This document shows, piece by piece, positions 48,117-49,360 of a stretch of 64,000 nt of DNA. Source of the stretch: Protonemura montana (lineage: Eukaryota > Arthropoda > Insecta > Plecoptera > Nemouridae); contig OX387608.1 in NCBI GenBank assembly GCA_947568835.1, forward strand, positions 14,608,001-14,672,000, read 5' to 3'. Made by a program: the position numbers and the translations under genes. The notes beneath the pieces are model-generated. The model made no database searches. It was not told the origin of the DNA and saw only the letters and a list, made by a program, of their open reading frames with translations. Each line of letters opens with the position of its first letter. Position 1 is the stretch's first letter.

Positions 48117-48195
48117 TGTCTGTTGAGGGTGAAAAGTGGTGAGAATACAGAGGTGTTTGCGATGATGTACTGGGTAACAAAGAGTCTGGATATTT

Positions 48196-48540
48196 GTTAT
48201 TATTAGGAACAGTATAACCGTCTCAAAAATTGATGCCCAAACGGGGACACGAATCCCGATCTTCACCTATCGCAGGTGTTGCTCTGAACCATTGAGCTAC
48301 TTGGACACTGGCTTTTTGAGACGATTTTAGTGTATTTGATGAGAATGACAGTTCTCCAAGGAGTAAATACTCACAGTCACTCTGATTCTAGTGACGCTAT
48401 ATCACGTTACAACCTGTCAAATTAGAATAACTCCAATTTGACGTTGGCATCAATTTTTGAGACGGTTTTAGTGTTGATAATAATAAAATGCCCCGCGCAT
48501 TGCAAGCGTTTGAAATTTAAATAAGATTTCATCCTAATTT
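48196..48540 (+). repeat. TIR/tRNA-like retroposon, complete copy with 14-bp target-site duplication
   Basis: Flanked by GAGTCTGGATATTT (48182-48195) and GAGTCTGGACATTT (48541-48554). Inverted-repeat ends: AACAGTATAACCGTCTC near the left end and GAGACGGTTTTAGTGTT near the right. Between them lie a tRNA-like segment on the minus strand (about 48235-48307) and a body with TCAAATACACTAAAATCGTC on that strand. The forward tail has GCATTGCAAGCGTTTGAAAT and GATTTCATCC. It lies between the coding start and the upstream 5' exon candidate of the bHLH gene. Confidence 0.88.
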
Positions 48541-49360
48541 GAGTCTGGACATTTTTTTCAAACAGTTTTTGGATAAATACTATTAAATGAGTTTAGATGG
48601 TTAATGAGTGGGGAATTGAGTTGATTAACAAAATAAAAAAATTGTTTTGATGGTTCATTTGTGGATTGTGGATGGTAAATCAGTAAAATTCTGTTTTCAT
48701 TCATAGGCTTATTACAATTGAGGTTAATCGGCTCTTAATTGAGTTCCGTGCGACTCAAATTTGAAATTTAAATCTAGTTGTTACTCTGTGTTTCGGCGAA
48801 ATGTGCTCTGCCATCTTCAAGATCAGTAAAAGCAGACACCAAAAAACCATATGCATTATCAGCCAAAAGCTCTAAAAACCTTCGGAAAACCGAATTTGCC
48901 ATATCTATAAAAATCCAGCTCATCTCACGCAATCTTCAGTCGTATGTTTTACTCAAAATGTATATAGATTTACTTAAAAAGTAACACTGAACTCAAGAAA
49001 AATTGGGGCTGCGCACCGAACGCCTTTTAAAACCACCTCTGCTGTCACGTTAAGGCTCAAAATGACTCAAATTCTGGAAACCCTTCACGATAACGGTTTA
49101 GACCCAACACTGAAGGTCCTCACTGCACATAATTGCACATGGGCTTTCAAAGAGTTTACCCGACACTGGTCATTGTAAATAAATAGTTCATAAAAATAAC
49201 ATTTAAAAATTCTCGGTGCCTTTTGATTTAAATCTATATTAATGCAGTTCTCAAAAAATATATGAGAACTTTGGCTGTGTCCTGATATTAAAGTAATGCT
49301 TGGTGACAATCTTTGATTGTCTCTATTATTTTAAACATTAAGAGTAAATTCTTTACTTAG

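What the first reader, a model, noticed from the sequence alone, without database searches (positions are those of the whole stretch)
48182..48554. Retroposon that combines a tRNA-like cloverleaf with terminal inverted repeats
The 345-bp element at 48196-48540 has a 14-bp target-site duplication with one mismatch, a length typical of LINE-driven retroposition. Its two ends, however, are inverted repeats, a DNA-transposon trait. Inside is a tRNA-like segment whose acceptor halves (GTCCAAG and TTTGGGC) can pair at all seven positions. In complete copies the tRNA part is oriented opposite to the tail. About ten related copies lie in the window (2011, 3883, 9257, 13880, 27686, 33238, 37988, 39011, 45989, 60468), several reduced to foldback arms. 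A tRNA-SINE with TIR-like ends is not a standard class.
Basis: partly seen in the sequence, partly recalled or inferred. Interest (0 to 1): 0.72.

Follow-up and report, generated by a model that had tools for sequence, protein, structure and literature searches.

The report
tRNA-bearing SINE with Penelope-style ends
The element belongs to a very abundant family of short jumping-gene copies carrying a tRNA-like module, and its odd inverted ends look like the signature of Penelope-type retrotransposition rather than of a DNA transposon, which would make it an unusual kind of SINE.

Summary
In detail: a 345-bp element with a 14-bp target-site duplication (TSD; one mismatch), inverted ends and a tRNA-like module, in a family with thousands of sequence matches genome-wide. 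The unit is 331 bp and also occurs in tandem. Copies end at two places: E1 (...TTGATAATAATAA) or E2 (E1 plus about 48 bp...AAATAAGATTTCATCC).

Of 59 sampled copies with both ends outward, 50 pair one E1 with one E2. TSDs vary (9-19 bp, mode 13), and 32 of 82 free E2 ends sit in such a TSD with an inverted E1 opposite (rotated-flank controls: 0, 0, 0, 1, 0). This is not MITE behaviour.

Inverted 3' ends, a "tail" on only one of them, tandem units and variable TSDs are the published signature of Penelope-like elements (PLEs). The genome holds PLE reverse transcriptases, with weaker GIY-YIG evidence. Two PLE families end the same way; one has the same 47-nt spacing between its ends.

Best explanation: a non-autonomous, tRNA-bearing retroposon mobilised in trans by a PLE. 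The TIRs are two cDNA starts facing outward.

Open: no significant sequence match to a PLE tail was found, most PLE loci could not be fetched, and LINE 3' ends were barely tested.

The parts
48182..48195 (.). left copy of the target-site duplication, GAGTCTGGATATTT
   Evidence: best extended TSD
48196..48540 (+). the element: inverted E1 end at the left, E2 (tail) end at the right
48197..48237 (-). left outward end: E1 plus right arm, inverted (TTATTATTAGGAACAGTATAACCGTCTCAAAAATTGATGCC)
   Evidence: (41-nt arm)
48210..48229 (-). right arm of the unit, pairs with 48314-48333 to form the stem below the tRNA-like module
48235..48306 (-). tRNA-like module with A box TAGCTCAATGG and a B-box-like stretch
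   Evidence: sequence; Rfam tRNA on sister copies; ARAGORN on the 39.1-kb copy; box counts
48314..48333 (-). left arm of the unit (CACTAAAATCGTCTCAAAAA on the minus strand)
48334..48447 (-). leader part of the unit, inverted; about its first 13 bases are missing at the central junction
48446..48486 (+). second copy of right arm plus E1 sequence, in the opposite orientation
48487..48538 (+). tail extension ending at E2 (AAATAAGATTTCATCCTAA)
48541..48554 (.). right copy of the target-site duplication, GAGTCTGGACATTT
2004..2128 (+). foldback copy of the family, exact 12-bp TSD AACTCAAAATAT
13883..14033 (+). foldback copy, exact 12-bp TSD AGAAAGTACACT
27695..27733 (+). tail-only copy, exact 12-bp TSD ATCATGTAGGTT
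37995..38257 (+). further copy of the unit; no convincing TSD
39009..39374 (-). further copy holding the tRNA-like module that ARAGORN calls; no convincing TSD
51716..51998 (+). foldback made of PLE1 ends, one short (E1') and one with tail (E2'), candidate TSD GTATTTGATTTT/GTATTTTATTTT: the Penelope family with the same end spacing

Best explanation
A non-autonomous retroposon (SINE-like, tRNA-bearing) moved in trans by a Penelope-like element. Tandem or monomeric unit RNA is bound by a PLE reverse transcriptase/endonuclease; both strands of a target site (AT-rich in the published PLE) are nicked; one strand primes reverse transcription at site E2, the other at site E1, about 47 nt upstream, on a second template or unit. 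The two cDNAs run inward for variable lengths and are joined. The product carries two outward-facing 3' ends, one with the tail and one without, in a TSD of about 9-19 bp. SHOWN: the end classes, their pairing, TSDs, tandem units, and PLEs with the same end architecture in this genome. INFERRED: that PLE enzymes act on it, the RNA intermediate, dual priming and joining. NOT SHOWN: which PLE family does it, and what the tRNA module does.
For: (1) Of 102 element pieces in 98 loci, 51 have TSD scores above the 95th percentile of 300 mismatched-flank pairs: 40 of the 59 paired-end and 11 of the 43 one-ended pieces. 33 paired-end copies above the 99th percentile have TSDs of 8-19 bp, mean 13.0. (2) On the same loci, 32 of 82 free E2 ends lie in a TSD whose other side is followed at once by inverted E1; five rotated-flank controls gave 0, 0, 0, 1, 0 of 82; mode 13 bp in 11 of 32. 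(3) Of 59 copies with both ends outward, 50 are E1+E2, 2 E1+E1, 1 E2+E2, 6 unclassified. (4) 41 of 50 carry the right arm in both orientations, so a single pass over one monomer RNA does not explain them. (5) 45 of 127 E2 sites run straight on into the next unit; a tandem array stands at C11:5.29 Mb. (6) Published PLE features match: inverted pLTR, optional 31-bp tail on one of them, TSD, tandems (PMC3846280, passages); a PLE enzyme cleaves and extends both strands and starts at two adjacent internal sites whose interval is the tail (PMC11167929, main text parts 1-2 of 4). (7) The genome has PLE RTs: 58 matches to a degenerate RYVDDTF pattern against 7 in the control, and RVT_1 at 49 and 52 bits in two families. 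L128's GIY-YIG scores 18.7 bits, below the cut-off of 22.6, and the PLE1 endonuclease ORF, which hit nothing in Pfam, aligns to it (E 7e-23). (8) PLE1 copies have short (E1') and long (E2') ends with 47 nt between the sites in 8 of 8 measurable copies, 2 not measurable; the unit's value is also 47. A PLE2 copy has a 32-nt tail and an exact 12-bp TSD.
Against: No significant sequence similarity between the unit's ends and PLE1: alignment scores no better than shuffles, and BLAST of the unit against L127-L130 gave only chance-level hits. The anchors for the 47-nt spacing (TAA, CATC) were chosen after looking; BLAST end points give roughly 44-49 in the unit and 45-47 in PLE1. 50 of 82 free E2 ends have no detected TSD with inverted E1, and 32 of 43 one-ended pieces have no TSD above the control level. 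The sample is biased: 9 of the 20 arm-anchored loci were chosen as inverted pairs, and tail-anchored loci contain an E2 by choice. In the 11 arm-anchored loci not so chosen, 5 are paired-ended and 4 of these are E1+E2. No shuffled control was run for the PLE1 and PLE2 TSDs. Only two PLE families had their ends read; eight further loci could not be fetched. GIY-YIG (PF01541) reached the threshold at only one place genome-wide, a 66-aa frame. No hammerhead was found in the unit.
Confidence: 0.78

Rival explanations
1. An ordinary LINE-dependent tRNA SINE whose copies are rearranged by twin priming and snap-back synthesis. E1 and E2 would be two 3' ends recognised by a LINE enzyme.
For: TSDs of 9-19 bp also fit LINE insertion. 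Intact A and B boxes are common (54 and 38 of 87 copies). RVT_1 genes, presumably LINEs in large part, are abundant (150 matches scored out of 1781 candidates). Four short foldbacks (L046, L047, L048, L076) share one junction, as snap-back would give.
Against: The frequent pairing of one E1 with one E2 (50 of 59) and the right arm in both orientations (41 of 50) are not what twin priming on one RNA gives. 20 RVT_1 loci show no match to the unit, although LINE 3' ends may lie outside the 1.5-kb flanks. The tRNA is about 170 nt inside the unit, not at its 5' end.
Confidence: 0.14
2. A MITE or foldback DNA transposon that captured a tRNA-like sequence.
For: Terminal inverted repeats and foldback copies.
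Against: TSD length is not fixed (9-19 bp). The inverted ends are unequal: one carries about 48 bp that the other lacks in 50 of 59 copies. Lengths of 50 paired-end copies run from 104 to 694 bp, and their central junctions vary from 4 bp of overlap to 53 bp of filler.
Confidence: 0.02
3. An animal-type retrozyme relative: tandem 331-bp units transcribed as multimers or circles, processed to monomers and inserted by a PLE. This agrees with the best explanation on the enzyme and differs on the RNA form and classification.
For: The unit length lies within the published 170-400 nt range (PMC7229834, abstract passage) and tandem units exist. PLEs are the proposed, unproven helpers of animal retrozymes (PMC7761336, passages).
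Against: No hammerhead in the unit, which is the defining feature. No RNA data.
Confidence: 0.06

Closest known systems
Penelope-like elements, Penelope/Poseidon clade (Pen2a of Adineta vaga; Poseidon of Anolis, PAc)
   Same: Inverted terminal unit, tail extension on only one of the inverted ends, tandem or partial-tandem units, variable TSD; in PAc, cleavage and extension of both strands from two adjacent internal start sites (PMC3846280 passages, PMC11167929 parts 1-2)
   Different: No coding sequence recognised; a tRNA-like module on a roughly 20-bp stem instead of a pLTR with a hammerhead; no significant sequence identity to PLE1, and only chance-level BLAST hits to the PLE2 stretch
tRNA-derived SINEs (LINE-dependent)
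   Same: Short, apparently non-coding, very abundant, tRNA-like module with A and B boxes
   Different: The module is internal rather than at the 5' end; many copies have two outward 3' ends; no shared LINE tail found in a small test; a T run 3' of the module (4 or more T in 82 of 87 copies) should stop pol III before E1 and E2
Animal retrozymes
   Same: Tandem non-coding units of about 300 bp suspected to depend on PLEs (PMC7761336 passages; PMC7229834 passages)
   Different: They carry type I hammerhead ribozymes; none found here
Short non-autonomous Penelope elements noted in heliconiine butterflies
   Same: Non-autonomous and PLE-related by name (PMC6685494, two passages)
   Different: No tRNA module is described in the passages seen

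Membership tests
Penelope-like element (non-autonomous member) | copies bounded by inverted terminal units | tested here: met
   59 of 102 element pieces have both ends as outward 3' ends; 5 of 11 in the arm-anchored loci not chosen as pairs
Penelope-like element (non-autonomous member) | short tail extension on one of the two inverted ends only | tested here: met
   50 of 59 E1+E2; 2 E1+E1, 1 E2+E2, 6 unclassified
Penelope-like element (non-autonomous member) | tandem or partial-tandem units | tested here: met
   45 of 127 E2 sites continue into the next unit; array in L006
Penelope-like element (non-autonomous member) | TSD of variable length | tested here: met
   9-19 bp in 32 copies; controls 0,0,0,1,0 of 82
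Penelope-like element (non-autonomous member) | autonomous PLE in the same genome | tested here: met
   PLE RT and endonuclease frames; the frames read are incomplete or lie in separate frames, so no intact autonomous copy was shown, and GIY-YIG is below its Pfam cut-off
Penelope-like element (non-autonomous member) | sequence shared with an autonomous PLE at the RT start sites | tested here: inconclusive
   no significant match to PLE1; the 47-nt spacing is equal; eight other PLE-motif loci were not fetched
Penelope-like element (non-autonomous member) | hammerhead ribozyme in the repeated unit | tested here: not met
   Rfam at E up to 10 on four loci. Rfam did not report one in the PLE1/PLE2 loci either (E up to 5), so the test is weak; it is common in PLEs rather than strictly defining
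LINE-dependent tRNA SINE | tRNA-like pol III promoter module | tested here: met
   sequence and model matches only; promoter activity not testable
LINE-dependent tRNA SINE | 3' end shared with a LINE | tested here: inconclusive
   none in 20 of the 150 RVT_1 matches listed; the stretches may stop short of the 3' ends
LINE-dependent tRNA SINE | tRNA head at the 5' end | tested here: not met
   module at unit positions 171-242, leader upstream
MITE | TSD of fixed length | tested here: not met
MITE | matching terminal inverted repeats | tested here: not met
   one end is about 48 bp longer in 50 of 59
Animal retrozyme | type I hammerhead ribozyme | tested here: not met

The most novel reading that the evidence does not exclude
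A class of SINE that depends on a Penelope-like enzyme instead of a LINE, in which the tRNA-like module on its long stem serves not as a pol III promoter but as an RNA handle or processing site (recognised by the PLE enzyme or cut by the tRNA-processing enzymes), taking the place that the hammerhead ribozyme holds next to the start sites in PLEs. The T run just 3' of the module, which should end pol III transcripts before E1 and E2, points that way.
Probability: 0.3. Interest if true: 0.8.

Novelty: new variant of a known kind. Interest (0 to 1): 0.62.

Why it matters
SINEs are generally defined as parasites of LINEs. A very abundant tRNA-bearing family with Penelope-style ends would widen that rule. 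It would also supply many small natural products of Penelope insertion, so the poorly understood PLE mechanism (two start sites, both strands extended, joining of two cDNAs) could be read from copies of about 100-700 bp and tested with a template of about 331 nt. In the listings of my paper searches and the passages I opened I saw no report of a tRNA-bearing PLE-dependent SINE. That library lacks most subscription journals and preprints.

Tried and rejected
MITE: rejected on variable TSDs and unequal ends. Simple LINE twin priming: rejected as the main account because the right arm is present in both orientations in 41 of 50 copies. Hammerhead in the unit or in PLE1/PLE2 by Rfam: none. Compensatory changes in the arm stem: 18 of 20 pairs form in more than 90% of the copies with letters on both sides (87 copies), but there is almost no double change, so this says nothing about selection; one pair is a near-constant A-A mismatch (formed in 8 of 87) and one forms in 76 of 87. 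A SINE/PLE1 chimera in L013 looked like direct proof, but reading the flanks showed a SINE lying inside a PLE1 copy with no TSD, so I dropped it. Sequence similarity of the unit's ends to PLE1: not above shuffles. PF26215, recalled from memory as a PLE domain, is not in the library. The RYVDDTF motif behind the pattern is also recalled from memory. Organism not identified; a TTAGG array suggests an arthropod.

Full report
WHAT WAS CHECKED. The window is C11:14608001-14672000 of a 258-Mb genome in 34 contigs, eukaryotic by its content. The 345-bp element at 48196-48540 is as described: a 14-bp duplication with one mismatch, 41-nt inverted arms (90%) and a tRNA-like module on the minus strand. 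The family is large: 6202 matches to the arm/E1 sequence (up to 3 mismatches), 2776 to the tail (up to 1) and 1087 to the leader (up to 3), against reversed-pattern controls of 0, 10 and 0.

THE UNIT. A consensus from 40 fetched loci plus the window gives a 331-bp unit. In tRNA sense it runs: leader (1-144), left arm (145-164), tRNA-like module (171-242), right arm (248-267), TTGATAATAATAA (268-280), tail to AAATAAGATTTCATCC (313-328). The two arms pair, so the module sits on a roughly 20-bp stem in the predicted fold. In the fetched loci, which were picked by good or exact matches, copies are about 92-96% identical to the consensus, depending on the region. Units occur head to tail (L006), and 45 of 127 tail sites continue straight into the next leader.

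THE ENDS. I tiled 100 loci with the unit and scored TSDs. These were 40 best-hit stretches, one of them (L045) lying inside another, plus 20 arm-anchored, 20 tail-anchored and 20 leader-anchored stretches. Nine of the arm-anchored loci (L046-L054) were picked because their arms formed inverted pairs. The table holds 102 element pieces from 98 loci; pieces within 45 bp of a stretch's end were left out. 51 of 102 exceed the 95th percentile of 300 mismatched-flank pairs: 40 of 59 paired-end and 11 of 43 one-ended pieces. Of the 59 paired-end pieces 50 combine E1 with E2, 2 are E1+E1, 1 is E2+E2 and 6 are unclassified. By my count from that list, E1+E2 makes up 20 of 22 in the best-hit loci, 7 of 9 in the chosen pairs, 4 of 5 in the other arm-anchored loci, 12 of 14 in the tail-anchored and 7 of 9 in the leader-anchored loci. 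L051, counted there as E1+E1, has an E2 further out with an 18-bp TSD.

A SECOND SCREEN on the same loci, anchored on E2, found 32 of 82 free E2 ends inside a TSD whose other copy is followed at once by inverted E1; rotated-flank controls gave 0, 0, 0, 1 and 0 of 82. TSDs are 9-19 bp, mode 13 (11 of 32). Some copies that look 5'-truncated also begin with a remnant of inverted E1 (L060, L070, L080). Against the reading: 50 of 82 free E2 ends do not pass the screen, and 32 of 43 one-ended pieces show no TSD above the control level.

INNER JUNCTIONS. In the 50 paired-end E1+E2 copies the inner junction runs from 4 bp of overlap to 53 bp of filler. Lengths run from 104 to 694 bp, and the tRNA module is present once in 27, twice inverted in 9 and absent in 14. 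The right arm is present in both orientations in 41. A single pass over one monomer RNA does not copy the same stretch onto both strands, so two templates, a multimer or snap-back is needed. Four short foldbacks share one junction (L046, L047, L048, L076), which suits snap-back at that point or descent from one copy.

THE PENELOPE LINK. Published PLE copies have inverted pLTRs, an optional 31-bp tail on one of them and TSDs (PMC3846280, passages). In PMC11167929 (main text parts 1 and 2 of 4) a purified PLE enzyme cleaves and extends both strands and starts reverse transcription at two adjacent internal sites, the tail being the interval between them. That paper saw no difference of start site between top and bottom strand, so the strict E1/E2 pairing here goes beyond it. 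E1 and E2 behave like those two sites. In this genome a degenerate RYVDDTF pattern (motif recalled) hit 58 places against 7 for the reversed pattern. Four stretches were fetched. PLE1 (L129, L130) and PLE2 (L128) have RVT_1 at 52 and 49 bits. L128's GIY-YIG scores 18.7 bits, below the cut-off. The PLE1 endonuclease frame hit no Pfam family but aligns to that of L128 (E 7e-23). A genome-wide GIY-YIG search found one place only, a 66-aa frame.

PLE ENDS HERE. PLE1 ends fall into a short form (...GTTTTTCTTAA) and a long form (...GAGTCTAAAAACCATC). The interval is 47 nt in 8 of 8 copies in which both motifs could be placed; 2 others could not be measured. The unit's interval is also 47. The motifs were chosen after looking; BLAST end points alone give roughly 44-49 and 45-47. 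Five PLE1 inverted pairs each combine one short with one long end, and 4 of the 5 have candidate TSDs of 7-13 bp, the 7-bp one weak; no shuffled control was run. The PLE2 copy has a 32-nt tail and an exact 12-bp TSD. So the architecture is not confined to one family here, and the spacing matches PLE1 rather than PLE2. The sequences themselves do not match significantly, so PLE1 as the helper is a lead only, which I put at about 0.4.

THE tRNA MODULE. Rfam scores it around its threshold (25.5-36.5 bits against 29 in four loci) and did not report the window copies at 39.1 and 48.2 kb. The A box TAGCTCAATGG is intact in 54 of 87 copies and the B box GGTTCGAGTCC in 38 of 87. A run of at least four T follows the module in 82 of 87. 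From general knowledge, pol III stops at such runs, so a pol III transcript should end before E1 and E2. Either the mobile RNA is made otherwise, or it reads through. What the module does is open.

LITERATURE. Searches for non-autonomous Penelope, SINE and tRNA combinations (listings) led to a mention of short non-autonomous Penelope elements in butterflies (PMC6685494, two passages) and the proposal that PLEs help animal retrozymes (PMC7761336, passages; PMC7229834, passages). A curation guide describes inverted pLTRs and short 3' extensions as PLE peculiarities (PMC8969392, passages). Two further PLE papers were not held.

VERDICT. A real and very abundant retroposon family. The strongest missing piece is a PLE that shares the start-site sequence.

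Noticed in passing
window 34068-34188 (-), 50682-50802 (+), 57964-58076 (+), 62177-62295 (+): Four dispersed 5S rRNA-like repeats (Rfam 40-57 bits), at least three of them followed by a similar non-5S segment, as in a 5S-derived SINE family; the copy near 58.0 kb holds several tandem 5S-like segments.
   Followed up: partly
window 2672-2808, 25203-25454, 40205-40459, 42259-42512, 45188-45436, 51716-51998: Six copies of the 3' region of a Penelope-like family (PLE1); two are foldbacks with one short and one long end.
   Followed up: yes
window 47811-48266 (-): Open frame with a basic helix-loop-helix sequence ([18 protein letters not shown]...); its likely ATG near 48116 lies about 80 bp from the element, which would then sit in the 5' flank of a transcription-factor gene (family name by eye).
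   Followed up: no
window 18630-20369 (-): 579-aa open frame with several C2H2-like zinc-finger motifs by eye.
   Followed up: no
window 31319-31840 (-): 173-aa open frame that by eye resembles part of an Hsp70-type protein; not tested.
   Followed up: no
L127 2690-2740: A degraded PLE1 reverse transcriptase sequence runs directly into a (TTAGG)n array, the common arthropod telomere repeat; it may be an interstitial telomere patch or a PLE joined to telomeric DNA.
   Followed up: no
C11 about 54 kb to 0.93 Mb: A dense cluster of reverse transcriptase matches near the start of the contig (33 of the 150 scored RVT_1 matches by my count); not classified.
   Followed up: no
L128 2118-2187 and 3669-3738: PLE2 copy with perfect 70-bp inverted repeats, a 32-nt tail on one side and a 12-bp TSD; by eye the repeat flank holds a hammerhead-like core (CTGAAGATGACAAG...CTTGTCGAAACGTC) that Rfam did not report.
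   Followed up: partly
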